From: Orientallactaga sibirica
Lineage: Eukaryota; Chordata; Mammalia; Rodentia; Dipodidae
Assembly: GCA_036365145.1 (NCBI GenBank)
Contig: JAEOAD010000982.1
Location: forward strand, 6,908,001-6,972,000
DNA: 64,000 nucleotides
Direction of reading: 5' to 3'
Positions 12,967 through 56,927 of the stretch are shown in pieces (position 1 is the stretch's first letter; every line of letters starts with the position of its first letter). Made by a program: the position numbers and the translations under genes. The notes under the pieces were generated by a model. The model was not told where the DNA came from, did no database searches, and saw only the letters and a list, made by a program, of their open reading frames with translations.

Positions 12967-13198
12967 TTTTTTTTTTGAGAGACTCAGAGAGGGGGGGGGA
13001 GAGAATGAATGGGCACGCCAGCAGCCTCTCAGCCACTGTGAATGAACCTCCAGATGCGTATATCCCTTTGTGGACAAGTGTGGCATTGCACTCTTGCATC
13101 ACTTTGTGTCTGGCTAAACATGGGACCTGGAGAATCGAACAGGTGTTCTTAGGCTTAGCAGGCAGGCGCCTTAACCGCTAAGCCATCTCTCTAGCCCA
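12967..13198 (-). repeat. tRNA-derived SINE, long form with GCATTGC insert
   Basis: Reverse strand; contains GACAAGTGTGGCATTGCACTC, the extra segment of the long subfamily. First of three same-orientation SINEs in a row. Confidence 0.9.
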
Positions 13199-13205
13199 TG
13201 TCATT

Positions 13206-13416
13206 TTAAAAAAAAAAAATTTATTTATTTACTTACTTGAAAAAGAGGCAGAGAGAGAGAGAGAATGGGCACTCCAGGGCCTCTAGCCACTGCAAAGAAC
13301 TCCAGATACATGTGCCCCTTTGTGCATCTGGCTTACGTGGGTCCTGTAGAATCGAACTGGGATCCTTTGACTTTGTAGGCACACGCCTTAACCACTAAGC
13401 CATCTCTCCAGCCCAC
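13206..13416 (-). repeat. tRNA-derived SINE
   Basis: Second of three; separated from neighbours by short TGTCATTTTAAAA-type target sequence. Confidence 0.92.
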
Positions 13417-13426
13417 CTGTCATTTT

Positions 13427-13644
13427 AAAAAAAAAATATTTATTTTATTTATTTGACAGAGAGAACAAGGCAGAGAGATGGGAGGGGGAGAGAATGGGCA
13501 TACCAGGGCCTTCAGCCACTGCATATGAACTCCAGACACATGTGCCCCCTTGTGCATCTGGTTTACATGGGTCCTGGGGAATCAAAACTTGGTTCTTTGG
13601 CTTTGCAGGCAAATGCCTTAACCACTAAGCCATCTCTCCAGCCC
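13427..13644 (-). repeat. tRNA-derived SINE
   Basis: Third of three; ends AAGCCATCTCTCCAGCCC and is followed by TCATTGACTTTTT, matching the left flank TCACTGACTTTTT of the first. Confidence 0.92.
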
Positions 13645-27918: not shown

Positions 27919-29477
27919 TAGTGGTGTCATTCTTGGCACTGCGTTTCTATTCCACTAGCCTTGCACCTTGGAGAAACAAGGTGAAATGGATCCTCTAGCC
28001 TACAGAGAGCCAGGCCCTCCTTAGGGTTGCATGGCTCACTTTGCTGACAGGTTGCATTGCTCACTTACAAGGGACTTGAGAGCTCTGCATTTGTTCATAT
28101 TAAGATTCAACAGCTTGTGACTCTGCACAAAGGCATGGAGATCATTAGTGTACTCACTGGAGATGTGATTTGACAAGATATTGATTCTGAACTTCTGCTT
28201 GCTTCTCTGTTCAACCCTTTCTTCCTTAGTAAGAGACAGAGAGAGAAATGAAACAGAACTAGGCCACTGGCTTTTGAAAAATATTGATCAGGGAGCACAT
28301 AGCTGTAGTTCAGACACTTTCCCCTTTGTGTGATGTCATGCTGTGTGGGGGCCTAATGGGTCCTGTAATCACCCCTGCAGGGATTTCTTCTTCAGGAAAA
28401 AAGATCAGGAAAGAAAAAGAATCCCCAGAAGCAATACCCAGAAATAATTTCCACGTTTCTAAGTGCATTTCTTTGAAGTCGTTGATCCCTTTGGTTTTCT
28501 AGGCCATGTGGTGGTATGAAGAAGTGGTATGATGGTCAGCTGTGAACAACAAGCCTCTGAACATTGTCCATCTCACTTCCTAATTTCTATCACCTCTCCC
28601 TGGCTTTGGCCTCCACTGCTGCATGTCTGTATGTTAGACACACACACACCCCTTACCCCACATGCATGTTCATTCTCATCACAATGCACATGTGTGGTAT
28701 GGGTGTGCTTTGGACAGCTGCATCTGTATTTGCACTAGCTATGAGTCAGGCTCCCAGGTGGGCCCCACTGGGTGAATGACGTGGCATAACCTTGAGTATC
28801 CTCTGGTCAAGTGAAGTGTGGCCTTGGCTTTTACTTTGATTTGCCTGGATTGGTTCTGTGAATGCAGCCAGGGATCCTGTTAATGGATCCCCTGGGGCAG
28901 AAGTAGAGCTGTTAAACCCCACAGGACACTTGAAATGACACCAGGAATAGGGTGAACTCAAAGTGGCAGCTGCTTATCAGGCCCAAGTTCTAGTATGTTG
29001 AAAGGGTGCCATTGAGTAAGAAAAATGCCAGCACACCTCCTCTTTTGCTTTGCACATTTGGGGAAAACGCCCTCTGCCTTTGCTAGCCTTAAAGCAGAAC
29101 ATTCTTGTTTCCCTACTCCATCATATCAGCTTTTATTACAAACCAATAGTAGCAAATATAAAGCCTCATCCCTGGAAACCTGTTTAAGGCAACACTGTGC
29201 TTCAGCGCTTCATGGTGGGATTTCTGCCTTCTGCACCAATGGATTCGTTTCTCATCACCATGCTGTCCTGACCCAGCAGCTTTTGAACAACCAAGAAGCA
29301 TTGCTCTGCTTTTTAATGCCTCTCTAAGAGACCAGGGCTGCTGTGCCTCTAGCCATATCCCAGGCAGCATACTTGAGACAAGTCAGCTTTATTTGCCTGC
29401 ATGCCTAGAAAGCCTCCCTTTAAAACCTTAGTTTAGGAGAAGATTTGTATCTAAATATTTTTGCTTTTTCTATCCAG
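27919..29477. other. Repeat-poor intron before SH3B exon
   Basis: About 1.5 kb just upstream of the exon at 29478, with no recognised SINE. A short (CA)n is at 28640. Open frames are unsupported. Confidence 0.5.
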
Positions 29478-29581
29478 GTGAGCGACGGAGGCGCCGATGC
29501 CAGGTGGCATTCAGCTACCTGCCCCAGAATGACGATGAGCTGGAACTGAAAGTCGGTGACATCATAGAAGTGGTAGGAGAG
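29478..29581 (+). CDS. SH3KBP1: SH3KBP1 (CIN85) internal exon, first half of SH3 domain B
   Basis: This 104-bp exon encodes residues of CIN85, a cytoplasmic adaptor that links CBL ubiquitin ligases, endophilins and cytoskeletal partners during receptor endocytosis. It starts after a TATCCAG acceptor with two bases that finish a Gly codon, then reads [20 protein letters not shown] and continues to ...VVGE (34 full codons, about residues 97-130 of the human protein, counted from memory). The RT-loop motif [14 protein letters not shown] is typical of CIN85/CD2AP SH3 domains, which prefer PxxxPR ligands. The exon ends in phase 0 before a GTAAGC donor. The ALYDY-type strand is VAFSYL here. The paralogue CD2AP is less likely, because the residues match SH3KBP1 as I remember it without an evident change. 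The frame also runs into the intron to a stop near 29689, which is not part of the spliced message. Confidence 0.97.
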
Positions 29582-30011
29582 GTAAGCGAGTGGTTAGTGG
29601 CCTTTTTGCCTCATGTGGCCATCAACCCCACCTGTTCACCCAGCCCCAAGGAGCCCTTGCTGCCAAATGCACAGCTCCACTGGCCTTGATATGGGATGTT
29701 GGAACTTGCAGAGACCTTAGAGATCATCTGGTTGAATTTCTTACAGAGGAATGCTTATAGGCCACTTGGGGTCAGATGTGGGACATTGTGAAGCCATTGA
29801 CTCTGTAACACAACATGCTAAGTACCATTGAAATTCCACCAACTTTCTTTTCTGCTTTAGTTAATGAGAGAGACCGGGAGTTCACATTGGCTGAGATCTA
29901 TCTCTAGAATATAGATTAAATATTCATGATGCGGAAAACCGTAGATTTAGGAAGAAGGAGTATATATTTAAAGACCAAACATATAACAGCTGTGATGATA
30001 TTCCCTTGTTT
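29582..30011. other. Intron start after SH3B exon, unique
   Basis: Begins GTAAGC; no repeat recognised to 30011. Confidence 0.5.
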
Positions 30012-31045: not shown

Positions 31046-31318
31046 AGGGCTGGAGAGATGGCTTAGTGGTTAAGGCGCCTGCCTCCTAAGCCTAAGAATT
31101 CTGGTTCCAGTCTCCAGCGGTTCCAATCTCCAGGTCCCACGTTTAGCCAGATGCAAAGTGACACAAGGGCGCAATGCTGCACTTGCCCACAAGGGGGCGC
31201 ATGCATCTGGATTTCGTTCACAGCAGCTGAGAGGCTGCTGGCTCGCCCATCTCTGTCTTCCTCTCCCTCTCTCTCTGTCTCTCTCCAAAAAAATAAAAAA
31301 ATAAAAAATAAAAAGTCT
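31046..31318 (+). repeat. tRNA-derived SINE, long form
   Basis: Complete forward copy of the expanded subfamily: duplicated B-box-like segment (GGTTCCAGTCTCCAGCGG then GGTTCCAATCTCCAGG) and the GGGCGCAATGCTGCACTTG insert; A-rich tail. Confidence 0.93.
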
Positions 31319-31364: not shown

Positions 31365-31885
31365 GCTGGGGAGATAGCTTAGTCAGTAAAGTGCTTGCCT
31401 TACAAGTATAAGAACCTGTGTTCACTCCATAAAAAAAAAACAAAAACGCTGGACATGGTTACACATGCCTGTAATATCAGCACAGGGGAGGTGGAGACAG
31501 GTAGATTCCTGGGATTATTGGCTAGCCAGTCTAGCATACTTGGTGAGCACCAGGCCAATAATGACTGTATCTCAAAAAGAAATGGATGAAGCTGGGCGTG
31601 GTGGCGCACGCCTTTAATCCCAGCACTCGGGAGGCAGAGGTAGGAGGATTGCTAAGAGTTCGAAGCCACCCTGAGACTACATAGTTAATTCCAGGTCAGC
31701 CTGGACCAGAGTGAGATCCTACTTTGAAAAACCAAAAAAAAAAAAAAAAAAAAAAAAAGAAAGAAAGAAATGGACGACACACATGAGGAATGACACCCAG
31801 GTTGTCCTCTGCTCTCTACACACATACACACATATGCATCTGCAGTACAATATGTGTGCCCACATACACATGAATATGCATACAC
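31365..31885 (+). repeat. B4-like SINE interrupted by a B1
   Basis: Head GGCTGGGGAGATAGCTTAGTC, B1-like part CCTGTAATATCAGCACAGGG to 31590; tail at 31762-31885 (GACACCCAGGTTGTCCTCTG, CA-rich). Confidence 0.8.
31591..31760 (+). repeat. B1-type SINE nested in B4, long poly-A
   Basis: GCTGGGCGTGGTGGCGCACG through poly-A. Target duplication AGAAATGGA[T/C]GA on both sides. Confidence 0.94.
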
Positions 31886-32224
31886 ATATGCACACCAAAA
31901 GAAGAAAGTTAAGTGAGTGCAACATGAAAGGACAATAATAAAACATTCCCATGATAGACGACTTCCTTAAGATGGTAACTATGGAAAAAATTCTAGAGAA
32001 AAAAAATAAGTAGATGTGACTAATAAAAATGTTTTAAAATGTTGGTATGATTTGAGGTAGTTAAGCTAAAGAAAAATAACAAATAAGAAAAAACTGTAAG
32101 TTATAACAAAAAGTTAGATATGTAACATATGAAAGCTATATTAGGAAGCTGCTAAAACAATGGTAAATAATATTTGAATCTGCCATAAACACAAATTCCA
32201 CAAGGGAGAAAATATTTTGTTAAT

Positions 32225-32335
32225 GTTTTTACACATAGTCTCACTAGCTAGCCCAAACTGACCTCAAACTTATAATCCTGTTGCCTCAGCAGTGTTGGGA
32301 TTTCAGGCATGTATCACCATATCTGCCTCTGGGGG
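32225..32335 (-). repeat. Old B1-related SINE (duplicated at 34828-34937)
   Basis: TAGTCTCACTAGCTAGCCCAA through GGGATTTCAGGCATGTATC. Confidence 0.65.
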
Positions 32336-32648
32336 AGAAGTCTTAACTATGTGAAAATATTCCTCCATTTTCTTAGTTAAAGAAACACAAATTAAGACAA
32401 TAATAGATTTCTGCTTAAATAAGCAGAAATTTTCAACATTTAGTATGTCTAAAAATTTCAGTGCTAAAACTTTTCAGTGCTCAGTATTACTGGTGAATTT
32501 TTAATCCATGTATGGTACTTTATATGAACCGATTTATCAAGATAGGTCAGTATCTATAAAAATATGAATAAAACTCTGACTGTGATCTCATTTCTAAGAA
32601 TTTATGTGAATAAAATAGTTAACAATGGAAAAAAATGACACAGGAATT

Positions 32649-32813
32649 TTTTTTTTGTTTTTTTGTTTTGGTTTTTTGAGGTAGGTTCTCACTCTAGCCC
32701 AAGCTGACCTGGAATTCACTCTGTATTCTTAGGGTGGCCTTGAACTTTTGGCGATCCTCCTACCTCTGCTTTCTGAGTGCTGGGATTAAAGGCGTGCACC
32801 ACCACGCCTGGCT
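32649..32813 (-). repeat. B1-type SINE (duplicated at 35259-35422)
   Basis: Reverse strand; GGTTTTTTGAGGTAGGTTC through CACCACCACGCCTGGC. Confidence 0.92.
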
Positions 32814-32865
32814 TAGAAAATGTTAATAGCAGCAGTGTTTGTGATAATAAAAATTAATCAATGGG

Positions 32866-33018
32866 AGCTGGGCATGGTGGTGCACACCTTTAATCCCAGC
32901 CCTTGGGAGGCTGAGGTAGGAGGATTGCTATGAGTTCGAGGCTACCCTGAGACTACATAGTGAATTCCATGTCAGCCTGGGCTACATTGAAACCCTGCCT
33001 CAAAAAAACCAAAACAAA
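32866..33018 (+). repeat. B1-type SINE (duplicated at 35475-35628)
   Basis: GAGCTGGGCATGGTGGTGCAC through CTGCCTCAAAAAAACC. Confidence 0.92.
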
Positions 33019-33157
33019 AATTAATCAAAGGGAATTAAGTTGTGTCATCCAGTTAAAAGATTGTAAAGCCATTAAGATGGTACACACAGAGAGAGCTCTT
33101 TGAGTATGTATTTATTATGATGTTCTGTTTTAAAATTCTTGGTTATATTCTACTAAG

Positions 33158-33285
33158 CTGAGAGCTTTTCAATGGAAGGGACTGGTTTTTATCTGTTTTT
33201 ATATTCAAGGTACCTGGAATAGAGCTGAATCCTAATATGCACATTAATAAATGCTTGCTAAATAAGTGTGTGAATGAATGGAAAT
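33158..33285 (+). repeat. L2 3' tail (duplicated at 35768-35895)
   Basis: GAAGGGACTGGTTTTTATCTG, ACCTGGAATAGAGCTGAATCC, ATAAATGCTTGCTAAATAAG and TGAATGAATG are the L2 end pattern. Confidence 0.7.
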
Positions 33286-33792
33286 ATGAGAACAGTTTTT
33301 CCAAAATAAATGAACAGGTCGGAACACAAAATTGCATGTACTACATAATCATGTAAAAAAATAAATGCATGTAATCAAAGATTGAAATGAGCAATAATTG
33401 AAAATGATCTTGTCACAGATGATTTTTCTTTGTAAAGACAAAGAAAGTGATTAATATATTCCTGGGGAAAATTCCTGTTGGCTGTGGGCAAAGTGAGTGT
33501 GGGTTGCTGAAGGAGAGGAACAGTTGTCATGCTGTGACTGTACTCACCCTAGATGACAGGAGCCGTTTGCCACCCGCAACTCCAGGCTCCTTTCAACTTG
33601 CAACCAGATGACTTCTGGGCTATATTCTTGGTTCACTTCCATGGGAAAAAGAAAAAGTAGCCATAGAGCCTATGATATTTACAAAAAGCTAATTGGCCTT
33701 TTAATCCACGTTTTTAAAATCCTACATTTTAAAAATCCTATCAGGAATTTCCTATTGTTCTAATTTACTTGTGATATTGTAGATATTGTAAC

Positions 33793-33796
<4 letters not shown>

Positions 33797-33833
<37 letters not shown>

Positions 33834-34070
33834 AGAGAGACACAGAGATAGAGAGGGAGAGGAAGACAGAATGGGCGTGCCAGCAGCCTCTCAACTGCTT
33901 TGAACGAAATCCAGATACGTACGCCCCCTTGTGGTCAAGTGCGGCATTGCGCCCTTGTGTTACTTTGCATCTGGCCAAACGTGGGACCTGGAGATTGGAA
34001 CTGGTGGAGATTGGAACCAGCGATCTTAGGCTTAGGAGGCAGGGGCCTTAACTGCCATCTCTCCAGCCCC
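33797..34070 (-). repeat. tRNA-derived SINE, long form (duplicated at 36407-36666)
   Basis: Reverse strand, with GTCAAGTGCGGCATTGCGCCC insert. The poly-T is about 36 here against about 22 in the second copy. Confidence 0.93.
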
Positions 34071-34112
34071 AGATGTTTTTTTGCCATTATGACTGTATAA
34101 AAATCTGTCCAA

Positions 34113-34270
34113 AGCCGGACGTGGTGGTACACGTCTTTAATCCCAGTGCTTGGGAGGCAGAGATAGGAGGATCGCTGTGAGTTTGACACCACCCTGAGAC
34201 TACATAGTGAATTCCAGGTCATCCTGGACCAGAGTGAGACCCTACCTCAAAAAACCAAACAAACAAACAA
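34113..34270 (+). repeat. B1-type SINE (duplicated at 36711-36868)
   Basis: AGCCGGACGTGGTGGTACACG through ACCTCAAAAAACC and AAAC repeats. Confidence 0.92.
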
Positions 34271-34329
34271 AAATCTATCCTTTTCTCTGCTAATGGATGT
34301 TGGTTAAGTGCTAATGGATATCTCTTGTA

Positions 34330-34491
34330 TGATTCCACTTGAAACTGTAGACAAAAATCAGAGTCCTAAGTAAAATCCTTTACATCACAGGGAAGATCAA
34401 AGTAAGGATATGAAGGGAGGAGAATTAACAAAAAGAAGTTTGTTTGAAAATGCCATAATGAAACCCAATATTGTACATGCTTATTTAAAAA
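34330..34491 (+). repeat. L1 3' end, cut by the duplication junction
   Basis: GGAGGAGAATTAAC, TGAAAATGCCATAATGAAAC, then TGCTTATTTAAAA where the second unit begins. The intact counterpart is at 36938-37098. Confidence 0.75.
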
Positions 34492-37088
34492 ACATATGCA
34501 CACCAAAAGAAGAAAGTTAAGTGAGTGCAACATGAAAGGACAATAATAAAACATTCCCATGATAGACGACTTCCTTAAGATGGTAACTATGGAAAAAATT
34601 CTAGAGAAAAAAATAAGTAGATGTGACTAATAAAAATGTTTTAAAATGTTGGTATGATTTGAGGTAGTTAAGCTAAAGAAAAAATAACAAATAAGAAAAA
34701 ACTGTAAGTTATAACAAAAAGTTAGATATGTAACATATGAAAGCTATATTAGGAAGCTGCTAAAACAATGGTAAATAATATTTGAATCTGCCATAAACAC
34801 AAATTCCACAAGGAGAAAATATTTTGTTAATGTTTTTACACATAGTCTCACTAGCTAGCCCAAACTGACCTCAAACTTATAATCCTGTTGCCTCAGCAGT
34901 GTTGGGATTTCAGGCATGTATCACCATATCTGCCTCTGGGGAGAAGTCTTAACTATGTGAAAATATTCCTCCATTTTCTTAGTTAAAGAAACACAATTAA
35001 ATTAAGACAATAATAGATTTCTGCTTAAATAAGCAGAAATTTTCAACATTTAGTATGTCTAAAAATTTCAGTGCTAAAACTTTTCAGTGCTCAGTATTAC
35101 TGGTGAATTTTTAATCCATGTATGGTACTTTATATGAACCGATTTATCAAGATAGGTCAGTATCTATAAAAATATGAATAAAACTCTGACTGTGATCTCA
35201 TTTCTAAGAATTTATGTGAATAAAATAGTTAACAATGGAAAAAAATGACACAGGAATTTTTTTTTTGTTTTTTTGTTTTGGTTTTTTGAGGTAGGTTCTC
35301 ACTCTAGCCCAAGCTGACCTGGAATTCACTCTGTATTCTTAGGGTGGCCTTGAACTTTGGCGATCCTCCTACCTCTGCTTTCTGAGTGCTGGGATTAAAG
35401 GCGTGCACCACCACGCCTGGCTTAGAAAATGTTAATAGCAGCAGTGTTTGTGATAATAAAAATTAATCAATGGGAGCTGGGCATGGTGGTGCACACCTTT
35501 AATCCCAGCCCTTGGGAGGCTGAGGTAGGAGGATTGCTATGAGTTCGAGGGCTACCCTGAGACTACATAGTGAATTCCATGTCAGCCTGGGCTACATTGA
35601 AACCCTGCCTCAAAAAAACCAAAACAAAAATTAATCAAAGGGAATTAAGTTGTGTCATCCAGTTAAAAGATTGTAAAGCCATTAAGATGGTACACACAGA
35701 GAGAGCTCTTTGAGTATGTATTTATTATGATGTTCTGTTTTAAAATTCTTGGTTATATTCTACTAAGCTGAGAGCTTTTCAATGGAAGGGACTGGTTTTT
35801 ATCTGTTTTTATATTCAAGGTACCTGGAATAGAGCTGAATCCTAATATGCACATTAATAAATGCTTGCTAAATAAGTGTGTGAATGAATGGAAATATGAG
35901 AACAGTTTTTCCAAAATAAATGAACAGGTCGGAACACAAAATTGCATGTACTACATAATCATGTAAAAAAAAATAAATGCATGTAATCAAAGATTGAAAT
36001 GAGCAATAATTGAAAATGATCTTGTCACAGATGATTTTTCTTTGTAAAGACAAAGAAAGTGATTAATATATTCCTGGGGAAAATTCCTGTTGGCTGTGGG
36101 CAAAGTGAGTGTGGGTTGCTGAAGGAGAGGAACAGTTGTCATGCTGTGACTGTACTCACCCTAGATGACAGGAGCCGTTTGCCACCCGCAACTCCAGGCT
36201 CCTTTCAACTTGCAACCAGATGACTTCTGGGCTATATTCTTGGTTCACTTCCATGGGAAAAAGAAAAAGTAGCCATAGAGCCTATGATATTTACAAAAAG
36301 CTAATTGGCCTTTTAATCCACGTTTTTAAAATCCTACATTTTAAAAATCCTATCAGGAATTTCCTATTGTTCTAATTTACTTGTGATATTGTAGATATTG
36401 TAACGGTTTTTTTTTTTTTTTTTTTTTGTGGAGAGAGACACAGAGATAGAGAGGGAGAGGAAGACAGAATGGGCGTGCCAGCAGCCTCTCAACTGCTTTG
36501 AACGAAATCCAGATACGTACGCCCCCTTGTGGTCAAGTGCGGCATTGCGCCCTTGTGTTACTTTGCATCTGGCCAAACGTGGGACCTGGAGATTGGAACT
36601 GGTGGAGATTGGAACCAGCGATCTTAGGCTTAGGAGGCAGGGGCCTTAACTGCCATCTCTCCAGCCCCAGATGTTTTTTTGCCATTATGACTGTATAAAA
36701 ATCTGTCCAAAGCCGGACGTGGTGGTACACGTCTTTAATCCCAGTGCTTGGGAGGCAGAGATAGGAGGATCGCTGTGAGTTTGACACCACCCTGAGACTA
36801 CATAGTGAATTCCAGGTCATCCTGGACCAGAGTGAGACCCTACCTCAAAAAACCAAACAAACAAACAAAAATCTATCCTTTTCTCTGCTAATGGATGTTG
36901 GTTAAGTGCTAATGGATATCTCTTGTATGATTCCACTTGAAACTGTAGACAAAAATCAGAGTCCTAAGTAAAATCCTTTACATCACAGGGAAGATCAAAG
37001 TAAGGATATGAAGGGAGGAGAATTAACAAAAAGAAGTTTGTTTGAAAATGCCATAATGAAACCCAATATTGTACATGCTTATTTAAAA
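34492..37088 (+). repeat. Tandem duplication unit, copy 2 (about 2.6 kb)
   Basis: Direct repeat of 31884-34491 at an offset of 2608 bp, changing to 2612 and then 2598 as small indels accumulate. It ends at TTATTTAAAA and continues into the unbroken L1 tail (ATTTTAAATG), so this right end is the ancestral one. The junction between copies (ATTTAAAA then ACATATG) shows at most a base or so of shared sequence. It is intronic in SH3KBP1 and contains no exon. Confidence 0.95.
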
Positions 37089-37098
37089 ATTTTAAATG

Positions 37099-43130: not shown

Positions 43131-43526
43131 GTGAAAATAATGTATATCACTATTTCAAAGTAAGAGTATAGATAATATTTTCAGATACAGCATCTATCAT
43201 AGAATATGAAAATATTTTATGATTTTTTGGTGATGAGTCACAAGTCCTAGTACTAGTGTGTTTACATTCATAATCAAAGGAAATGGCAAAGTTTGGTGAT
43301 GAAAATTAAATATTACTTTTTGTTCATTTGTGTTAGTGCATTCCACATTAATCCCCCTTTCTTAGTTTGAGTCTCAAGACTGTGTGGCCTGCTCTCTTGT
43401 TCCCTGGTTACTTTTAAGCTATGGGCTCTTCCCCTGTCTCTATGTGTATTTTCTTGTGCATTGAAGAGGTAGGATGCACTTATAATCTAACTCTACAACT
43501 TTGTTCTTCTCTTTGATTCTGCACAG
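43131..43526. other. Intron upstream of SH3B second exon
   Basis: AT-rich, repeat-free; ends in the exon acceptor. Confidence 0.5.
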
Positions 43527-43656
43527 GTAGAGGAAGGATGGTGGGAAGGTGTTCTCAATGGGAAGACTGGAATGTTTCCCTCCAACTTCATCAAGGAGCT
43601 GTCGGGGGAGTCAGATGAACTTGGTATTTCCCAGGATGAGCAGCTGTCCAAGTCAA
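43527..43656 (+). CDS. SH3KBP1: SH3KBP1 (CIN85) internal exon, second half of SH3 domain B
   Basis: A 130-bp exon following a TTCTGCACAG acceptor. It begins in phase 0 with [20 protein letters not shown] and continues FIKEL, the conserved WW, n-Src/distal loop and FPSNF 3-10 helix segments that complete SH3B. After the domain comes an acidic tail, [18 protein letters not shown]. Together with the exon at 29478-29581 this makes a full SH3 fold of about 60 residues. The second Trp pair and the Pro/Asn of the FPSNF motif form the ligand groove in this family. The exon leaves one base (A) of a Ser or Arg codon and ends at a GTAAGG donor. This phase-1 end can join either to the cassette exon at 44195 (giving Arg) or directly to the exon at 56483 (giving Ser), both in frame. 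About residues 131-173 in human numbering. Confidence 0.97.
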
Positions 43657-44194
43657 GTAAGGAAGTCTACCCCAGTGAACAGGAACGGGAGGGAGAGACC
43701 AGCAGGCTCTGTCCCAGCCTCCTTTCTCTAACATGTTCTATACTGAAAGGCTGTGACAGAAGCTTGTGGGAATTTTACTGGTTATCCTACTTTAACCCAC
43801 TGTGGTTTATTGAGTTCATCACTGTAAAGATAAGACCTGTAGCCAGGCATTCTACACACATCTCTGCATAGGTGACTGCTAGCTCTCATGCTGTGATAAT
43901 GCTGCCTCATGGGTGGTGCAGGTTGCTATGCCTCCATACACTTCTAGAATATTATTTATCATTAAGTACATCATTACTTTTAAAATGAATCCAATGAGAT
44001 TGTCAGTATTTCTGTGTTCCTTGAAGAACTTTGAGAAAAATAATAAAATTAACAGAATCGTGGTGGTAGGAAGTACTTGCCAGTTCAGGTAAAGTATGTC
44101 AAGACAGACAGCTTAGAGTCCATGACCTACCTTGGATGAGGAAGTATTTCCTTCTGTGATGGTGAGAACGAACTTCAGGTCTTTTTTTCTCCAG
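43657..44194 (+). other. Short intron between SH3B exon and cassette exon a
   Basis: 538 bp, repeat-free. The exon frame stays open across the donor to TAG at 43869-43871, and an AATAAA lies at 44042-44047. Confidence 0.6.
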
Positions 44195-47572: not shown

Positions 47573-47843
47573 TTATTTTTTATTTTTTTTTGGAAAGAGA
47601 CACAGACAGAGATAGACAGAGAGGGAGAGGGAGACAGAGATGGGCACGCCAGCAGTCTCTCAGCTGCTATGAACAAAATCCAGATGTGTGTGCCATCTTG
47701 TGGGCAAGTGCGGCATTGCGCCCTTGCGTCACTTTGCATCTGGCTAAACGTGGGACCTGGAGATTGGAACCGCTGGAGATTGGAACCAGCATTCTTAGGC
47801 TTAGGAGGCAGGTGCCTTAACCGCTAAGCCACTCTCCAGCCCA
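47573..47843 (-). repeat. tRNA-derived SINE, long form
   Basis: Reverse strand; has the AAGTGCGGCATTGCGCCC insert and duplicated GATTGGAACC segment. Target duplication AAGAATGCATTTTT at 47546 and 47843. Confidence 0.93.
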
Positions 47844-54075: not shown

Positions 54076-56482
54076 ATAACAGCAAAATGCTAACATCATT
54101 TCTAAACATGCACTTACCTTGTATTAATAACAAGCCTTTCATAAACTGGCTCTAATCTACAATTTACTCTCTAGGTTTCACTGCCTATAATTGTTATCTG
54201 CCATTCTGAGGATGACATGGAACATTTTATTAAACAACATGCCTCTTGGGCACCAGTAGCTGAAAGGTACAGCACCAAACATACATGAAAATGAATTTAC
54301 CTTTCTTCCCTTCCAAAGGGAAGGAACTTGATATTACTTCCTAATGCACATATTTAGTTATGTCATTAATATTCTTAAAAATGACAAAGCTGGGCTGCCA
54401 AAATTTCTGGAAGAAAAATCTGCCGTGTGTTTCCTTCTGAGGCCATGCTTGTGTGATTGAGTGATGTGCAACCTCTCCCTGTGCAACAGAACATTTCTTA
54501 CAAGGATTAATATAATGGTATTAAGATGAGCCCGAAGGCAGCGAATCCCTAAAACTGTAAACTTGGTGAAATTAGGATGGCATTGATGACATTATTATGG
54601 CTGTAGCTAATAGTGAACAGTATAAGGGTCCTTAAAATTCCCTTCAATAAAGATGTAAAACAGACTTGCCCTGCTGCCTTCTGGTATTGATGGGGGTGTG
54701 TGTGGTGGTAATAGTGGTTTCATTCCACTATTTCTTTAGTTCGCATCCCCCCCAAAATGGTTCTTTCTAAACATGAGGGAGAATATGCAAGCCATTTATC
54801 ATGTAGAAAGAATCCATACAGCAAAATAAGAACATGTTCAAGGGGAAATGACACAATATTTAGATTCCAAAATTATATCTTTCAGCAGGGATATTTCCAG
54901 AAACAATGAATAAATAAACACATAAATGGGTAGCTAATCCAGGGGGTTCTCCATGTTTGCAAACTTGGGTCCTGTGGATTGCAGCCGACCCCCAGCTCCT
55001 TATGGGTTGTGCCTCATTGTTCAGTCCTCCATTCTTGCTCACAAATGCTTTGCTTCAGTTAATTAAAATAAACACCAGGGACCTTCCTCCTCCCCCACTC
55101 TTTTGGCTTAGAAATGCTATTTTGTGGAAAATAGCAGCAACAACAAAGGAATCCATTGTTTTAAGGATGTGATTTTGAAACTTGTTAGCATTTATAATGA
55201 CCTTTCTATATGCTATCTGTTTTCATTTAACAGTTTCTTCCTGCTCTGAGACTTCCTCACTTGAATGACTTCAGCATTTTATGATATTTTATGTGAGCAA
55301 TTATTTGGTGTATCATTATTATACACTAGGAGGCCACCTTACCTGTAGGAAGATAATGCACAATTGGCCAGTAGCGAACTAAATTTGATGGCATATTTTC
55401 AGTCCTGAGGGCATTGGTATGCTCAGGAGATGGGTAGTAAATGGTCAGACACTATCCTATACATATAAAGGCTTTGAAATACAGTTCGATGACAGAATTT
55501 AGTAATCCATAAACTATCTTTTGAATACTGTCCTTTGATGGCATAATTAGTGTCCTGACCGTCAAAGGAAGAACATGTACCCAGAAACTAACTAGATACA
55601 AGTAGGTTCTTCCTTTTAGGAACATGGGCAGAGCCAGGGGAAAAGGATCTGGGGAGGTAAGTGCATATATTGTCTTACTGATAATTATCTTATGCCTCCC
55701 AACTCATGCCCCAAGAGGTCAAAGGAAGAGTATCATATTTTCTTTAAAAAGGGATTCAGCTTTGGGAAGATGATGGTGTTAAAAGAGAGAGGAAGTACCA
55801 TAGGCATGGGGGATTCTACCCTCTGGGAGGGTAGCTTTCTTCCTCTCTTTACCAAACACCATCATCTTGCTAGTGGAACTGTCATAATGTCAAGTTTGGT
55901 TTAATGTTTTCCTAGAGAAATATGTCTGCATGCACTTATTCCTTGTGAAATTATCCAAAGAGATTTAATTCTTTGGCAGTCATAATTTTGTGTGGTTTAA
56001 TTGCTAATTTGTTTCAATTGCTTTTAGCTTTACAGTTTCCCTTTAGGAAATGTTACTTTCATTGCTAATTGCTAATTGACGTGAGTCAGAGAGTTTGGAG
56101 GTACAGTGTGTGGTACTGACTTGACTAGGGAGGTGACAAGGGAGTGGGGAGGGCTGATGTTGCACAAGCCATGTGCAAACAGATTTGGACTAGAACCAGG
56201 CTCCTACTGAAGTGAGGTGAAATGTCATAATGTCACATATGCAAAGAGATCTGCTTTAAATAAGATTTTCTTAAAAGTTACTTTGATTTATTGCTTAAAG
56301 TCAAAATCTACTGTTAGGAATATCAGATAAAACTCAGAGAGAGCCAAAGTCAGCATACTCAACACATTGAATGCAAAAAGCCCAGTCACACTTTAGAGGT
56401 GGCTCCTGGCTGTCTGAGAAGGTCTTCTTTAGGGCTCTGGATGGTTTCTGAGCTCTTTCTCTCCCCACTCCCCTTTTGACAG
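54076..56482. other. Repeat-poor intron upstream of linker exon
   Basis: About 2.4 kb in which I recognise no SINE or L1, the longest such run in the window. It holds a TAAT-rich patch with an AP-1-like site near 55995-56090. Confidence 0.55.
55995..56090. promoter_or_regulatory. Candidate intronic enhancer: homeodomain-like and AP-1-like sites
   Basis: Several TAATTGCTAATT-type motifs (55998-56010, 56061-56077) followed by TGAGTCA at 56082-56088, a consensus AP-1 site. Repeat-poor setting about 400 bp before the linker exon. Function is inference. Confidence 0.3.
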
Positions 56483-56688
56483 GCTTAAGGGAAACCACAG
56501 GCTCCGAGAGTGATGGGGGTGACTCAAGCAGTACCAAGTCCGAAGGTGCCAATGGGACAGTGGCAACTGCAGCCATTCAGCCCAAGAAAGTTAAAGGAGT
56601 GGGCTTTGGAGATATTTTCAAAGACAAGCCAATCAAACTAAGACCAAGGTCAATTGAAGTAGAAAATGACTTCCTGCCAGTAGAAAAG
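56483..56688 (+). CDS. SH3KBP1: SH3KBP1 (CIN85) internal exon, linker between SH3B and SH3C
   Basis: A 206-bp exon after a CTTTTGACAG acceptor. GC completes a Ser codon, then 68 codons read [20 protein letters not shown], followed by [40 protein letters not shown] and NDFLPVEK. The exon ends in phase 0 at a GTATGT donor. It is a low-complexity acidic/Ser-rich stretch followed by a basic conserved block, [22 protein letters not shown], which has a counterpart in the paralogue CD2AP. It lies just before SH3C, whose exon should start with TIGKK and is not in this window. In the human protein this corresponds to about residues 175-242. The residues agree with human SH3KBP1 as I remember it. Confidence 0.97.
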
Positions 56689-56927
56689 GTATGTTTGACA
56701 GTTTTTGTTTGATTTCATTGTAATGCAAAATATCCAAAAGTACATCTTGAGTTTGACATCAGATGTTTCTGGGACCTCTTTTGAGGCTTCAAAGTTTTCC
56801 TTTGTTAGCTGTTCTCCATCCTCCCTTTTTTGTTCACCTTCCATGTAGGAATAGTTTTCTTATGGCTCTCTTGTGTCAGTCAGCTACTATATCATCACTA
56901 TTAGAAAATAAAGCTTCAGATAAAGTT
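56689..56927. other. Intron start after linker exon, unique
   Basis: Begins GTATGT; no repeat. Confidence 0.5.

What the first reader, a model, noticed from the sequence alone, without database searches (positions are those of the whole stretch)
31884..37088. Near-perfect 2.6-kb tandem duplication in an SH3KBP1 intron
Two head-to-tail copies run collinearly from 31884 and 34492. The differences I saw are nearly all homopolymer length changes, one 4-base insertion and a poly-T length change (about 36 against 22). If real, the duplication is very young, with at most a base or so of microhomology at the junction inside an L1 tail. The homopolymer-biased differences are also what uncorrected long-read error or a false duplication in assembly would give.
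Basis: partly seen in the sequence, partly recalled or inferred. Interest (0 to 1): 0.75.

Follow-up and report, generated by a model that had tools for sequence, protein, structure and literature searches.

The report
Probable false duplication in rodent intron
A 2.6-kb stretch of a rodent gene's intron appears twice in a row, but the two copies differ almost only by small length changes typical of long-read sequencing error, so an assembly mistake is somewhat more likely than a new piece of biology.

Summary
The repeat is present in the sequence as given: copy 1 is 31884-34491 (2608 b), copy 2 is 34492-37089 (2598 b), head to tail, with no filler, no N and 0 bp of microhomology at the joint. 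It lies in an SH3KBP1 intron, between coding exons near 29.5 and 43.5 kb. The SINEs suggest a jerboa-family rodent (inference).

Outside one poly-T tract (38 against 21 T), the copies differ at 8 places, and 8 of 8 are indels: seven 1-2 base changes in runs of 2-9 bases and one 4-base insertion. Sixteen SINE copies elsewhere in the window show 177 substitutions and 6 indel events against their consensus, so this is not an ordinary mutation spectrum. It resembles residual long-read consensus error. The differences therefore cannot date the event.

Leading reading (0.6): a false 'homotype' duplication, overlapping contig ends joined untrimmed. A genuine, very young or polymorphic tandem duplication (0.37) is not excluded; the absence of a gap and the short unit speak for it. 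No reads were available. Junction-spanning reads and depth would decide. Interest is low either way.

The parts
31884..34491 (+). copy 1 of the tandem unit (2608 b)
   Evidence: self-alignment and global alignment
34492..37089 (+). copy 2 of the tandem unit (2598 b)
   Evidence: self-alignment and global alignment
34491..34492 (.). the joint between the copies: blunt, 0 bp microhomology, no filler, no N
33795..33832 (+). poly-T of copy 1, 38 T; the longest T run in the window
36407..36427 (+). poly-T of copy 2, 21 T, followed by GTGG
32389..32390 (+). place in copy 1 where copy 2 has 4 more bases (at 34995)
29477..29590 (+). SH3KBP1 coding exon upstream of the repeat (match range, not exact splice sites)
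   Evidence: tblastn, 97.4% identity
43521..43658 (+). SH3KBP1 coding exon downstream of the repeat (match range)
   Evidence: tblastn, 95.7% identity; Pfam SH3

Best explanation
A false 'homotype' duplication made during assembly. The end of one contig (at 34491) and the start of the next (at 34492) came from the same place and overlapped by 2.6 kb; they were joined end to end without trimming, and any gap between them was closed. The true locus would hold one unit. Shown: the copies are alike except for run-length and other small indel differences, and the joint is blunt. Inferred: that two contig ends met here, that a gap was closed, and that the genome has one copy.
For: 8 of 8 differences outside the poly-T are indels, seven of them in runs of 2-9 bases, against 177 substitutions to 6 indel events in 16 SINE copies of the same window. 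The VGP paper says that short indels are the commonest error of CLR contigs, and that overlaps at contig boundaries give false tandem copies of differing consensus quality (PMC8081667, passages); gaps were also closed by the Arrow step. False copies hold more erroneous k-mers and are sometimes connected by incorrect gap filling (PMC9516828, passages). The 8 differences crowd to the start of the unit (p 0.003-0.012 over five nulls; with the poly-T included 0.013-0.037), as weak coverage at a contig start would give. Both differences that SINE relatives polarise well are odd in copy 2. The joint is blunt, as an arbitrary contig end often gives by chance.
Against: There is no N at the joint, whereas both papers say that a gap is usual between false copies, and Ko et al. 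describe a true tandem duplication lying within one contig. [quoted passage not shown] 2.6 kb is short for that (recalled typical lengths). Residual indels would also be left in a true duplication, since short reads cannot be placed there (inference). The poly-T edge, if anything, makes copy 1 the odd one. The position test is post hoc on 8 or 9 points. Sequencing technology and species are unknown.
Confidence: 0.6

Rival explanations
1. A genuine, very young tandem duplication, possibly polymorphic or private to the sequenced animal, formed by end joining or a replication template switch with a blunt joint. The indel differences would be unpolished long-read errors laid over two identical copies.
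For: 0 substitutions outside the poly-T edge fits an age near zero. There is no gap or filler at the joint. The left breakpoint lies in a 22-base alternating purine-pyrimidine run (31874-31895), one of 11 such runs of 22 or more in the window; CNV breakpoints are enriched for non-B DNA motifs (PMC4056370, passages). Short reads cannot polish identical copies (inference).
Against: It needs sequencing errors as well as a duplication. Blunt joints are a minority of human CNV breakpoints in the table seen: 58 of 302 (19%) and 82 of 743 (11%), the first set deletions only. The errors would be expected in both copies without a skew to the unit's start.
Confidence: 0.37
2. An older real duplication kept alike by gene conversion between the copies.
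For: Head-to-tail copies can be homogenised (general knowledge), and no substitutions separate these.
Against: Identity runs to both ends of the unit without diverged edges, and the indel differences would still need another cause.
Confidence: 0.03

Closest known systems
Homotype false duplication at contig boundaries (PMC8081667 and PMC9516828; passages of both seen, and one short section of the first)
   Same: Head-to-tail copies of one locus, no substitutions between them, indel-type differences, blunt joint.
   Different: No gap between the copies, whereas a gap is usual; the unit (2.6 kb) is short for a corrected long read; depth not tested.
Young, polymorphic intronic tandem duplication (ordinary copy-number variant)
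   Same: Direct orientation, kb size, intronic place, near identity, no gap.
   Different: The differences between the copies do not follow a mutation spectrum; presence in an animal is untested.

Membership tests
Homotype false duplication | Two copies of one locus without haplotype-type (substitution) differences | tested here: met
   0 substitutions outside the poly-T edge
Homotype false duplication | Differences look like sequencing errors | tested here: met
   8 of 8 indels outside the poly-T, seven in homopolymers; control 177 substitutions to 6 indel events
[quoted passage not shown]
   No N between the copies; a depth gap could not be looked for without reads
Homotype false duplication | Read depth below that expected of two copies; excess k-mer copy number in the assembly | not testable with these tools
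   No reads available
Heterotype (two-haplotype) false duplication | Haplotype-specific variants between the copies | tested here: not met
   No substitutions outside the poly-T edge; low heterozygosity could hide it
Genuine tandem duplication | Direct adjacent copies with a defined joint | tested here: met
   an artefact meets this too
Genuine tandem duplication | Differences between the copies follow a mutation spectrum | tested here: not met
   8 indels to 0 substitutions outside the poly-T; a near-zero-age duplication with sequencing errors would fail this as well
Genuine tandem duplication | Joint present in the animal's DNA | not testable with these tools
   Needs reads or PCR

The most novel reading that the evidence does not exclude
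A real, effectively zero-age 2.6-kb tandem duplication in this rodent's SH3KBP1 intron, perhaps private to the sequenced animal, formed by blunt joining at an alternating purine-pyrimidine tract.
Probability: 0.35. Interest if true: 0.15.

Novelty: not a real feature. Interest (0 to 1): 0.08.

Why it matters
Mainly as a caution: a gapless false duplication can pass for a young segmental duplication. Comparing indels with substitutions between the copies, with SINE copies of the same window as the control, shows from sequence alone that the differences are largely technical and cannot date the event. If the duplication is real, it would be an ordinary intronic copy-number variant.

Tried and rejected
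A chance match or a shared repeat family as the cause was rejected: the match spans the whole 2.6 kb, and non-SINE pieces of the unit have only weak matches, or none, elsewhere in the window besides the other copy.

A heterotype (two-haplotype) false duplication was considered and is unlikely, as no substitutions separate the copies; low heterozygosity could hide it.

Polarising the differences. Two lie in B1-like SINEs and both are odd in copy 2. At the poly-T edge, copy 2 keeps a CC before the A tail that copy 1 lacks. The CC is seen in 3 of 20 other listed SINE ends, among them the two elements closest to this one, and is absent in 17 of 20 (closeness), so this only tentatively makes copy 1 the odd one. 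For the 4-base insertion, copy 1 reads open across a stretch that I recall as resembling an L1 ORF2 motif; the PDB search with that peptide found nothing, so I do not count it. The other five differences were not polarised.

Rfam gave no match in the window at gathering thresholds. Own-genome searches did not complete, so other copies in the genome were not looked for.

Papers: PMC8081667 was seen as passages and one short section; PMC9516828, PMC3439969, PMC4056370 and PMC8466645 as passages. PMC3439969 added nothing used here. PMC12240836 and the jerboa assembly papers were seen as search listings only.

Full report
What is there. Self-alignment of the window gives one long direct repeat: 31884-34491 against 34492-37089, 2616 columns, 98.93% identity, 2 mismatches and 26 gap bases. 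The copies abut exactly. The base before copy 1 is C while the unit ends in A; the base after copy 2 is T while the unit begins with A. The joint thus has 0 bp of microhomology and no filler, and the window holds no N.

Setting. tblastn with the human SH3KBP1 protein, typed from recall, finds three exons on the plus strand at 29477-29590, 43521-43658 and 56479-56694, at 97.4, 95.7 and 94.4% identity in ungapped matches. The second matches three SH3 models in Pfam, two of them above their cut-offs. The repeat lies in the intron between the first two. With one seed each, the window has 36 hits to a B1-like SINE and 33 to a B2/Dip-like SINE, the copies inside the duplication included. The Dip SINE is specific to Dipodidae, and its Dip_b2 variant is marked by a 16-bp sequence (PMC8466645, passages); a 16-base near-tandem unit is found in two of the elements here (31103-31133 and 47757-47787). 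I infer a jerboa-family rodent. That the elements are Dip rests on recall and this one feature, since no letters were compared; the species is not established.

The differences. Outside a poly-T tract there are 8 differences and 8 of 8 are indels. Six change a run by one base and one by two bases, in runs of 2 to 9 bases; the eighth is a 4-base insertion in copy 2. The ninth difference is the poly-T (38 against 21 T), whose edge contains both mismatches. As a control, 16 SINE copies outside the duplication, chosen by hand as near full-length from the 36 hits, were compared with their consensus over its first 130 bases: 177 substitutions and 6 indel events. At that ratio, 8 indels of 8 has a probability of about 1e-12. 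This control carries old changes, and short homopolymers mutate somewhat faster than other sites, so the figure is a guide only. [quoted passage not shown] the text is cut there, and its tandem-repeat figure was not seen (PMC12240836). The differences are thus mainly technical. With 0 substitutions in about 2570 bases, the 95% upper limit on true divergence is about 0.12% (3/2570, own arithmetic).

Which copy is odd. Of the 36 B1-like hits, 30 were long enough to align; 6 of the 30 lie in the duplication, which leaves 24 rows for comparison. The base that copy 2 lacks near 35356 is filled in 24 of 24 rows. The extra G of copy 2 near 35549 is absent in 22 of 24; the two exceptions are poorly aligned rows, and one of the 22 lies in a larger gap. 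Both differences make copy 2 the odd one. At the poly-T edge the sign is reversed but weak: a CC before the A tail is kept by copy 2, missing in copy 1, and present in 3 of 20 other ends, two of which belong to the closest relatives. The 8 differences have a mean offset of 620 in a unit of 2608 bases; against a uniform null and four run-weighted nulls p is 0.003 to 0.012. With the poly-T included as a ninth point the mean is 764 and p is 0.013 to 0.037. This test was thought of after seeing the data.

Mechanism. Before short-read polishing, the commonest errors of CLR assemblies were short indels; [quoted passage not shown] The same paper's gap-filling section says that Arrow closed about as many gaps as PBJelly. 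Ko et al. found that false copies are most often separated by a gap and sometimes connected by incorrect gap filling, that they hold more erroneous k-mers, and that an allele-specific true tandem duplication lay within one contig (PMC9516828, passages). A gapless version of the contig-overlap process explains the blunt joint, the identity, the indel-only differences and their skew. It does not by itself explain why no gap is left, and 2.6 kb is short for a corrected read. A near-zero-age true duplication explains the identity and the missing gap, and needs residual errors on top, which is plausible where short reads cannot be placed. Blunt joints are 19% and 11% of human CNV breakpoints and 35% of fly ones in the table seen in PMC4056370. 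I put the artefact at 0.6, a real young duplication at 0.37 and an old homogenised one at 0.03; these odds are judgement, not computed.

Limits. No reads, depth, second assembly or repeat library were available, and the own-genome search did not complete. Sequencing technology and species are unknown, so the link to CLR-type pipelines is by analogy. Whether the joint lies in an L1 tail is neither confirmed nor excluded.

Noticed in passing
13109-13644: Imperfect tandem array of period 230, 2.4 copies, 82% matches; three B2/Dip-like SINE hits follow each other there on the minus strand, so it is probably SINEs inserted side by side or a duplicated SINE.
   Followed up: no
31103-31133 and 47757-47787: A 16-base near-tandem unit inside two B2/Dip-like SINEs, which would fit the 16-bp feature of the Dip_b2 variant of jerboas (PMC8466645, passages).
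   Followed up: partly
31874-31895: A 22-base alternating purine-pyrimidine run spans the left end of the unit; the window has 56 such runs of 12 or more bases, 11 of them of 22 or more, 995 bases in all, so chance is possible.
   Followed up: partly
33795-33832: The 38-T run of copy 1 is the longest T run in the window; the other eight runs of 15 or more T are 16-25 long, which may mean that its length is overstated.
   Followed up: partly
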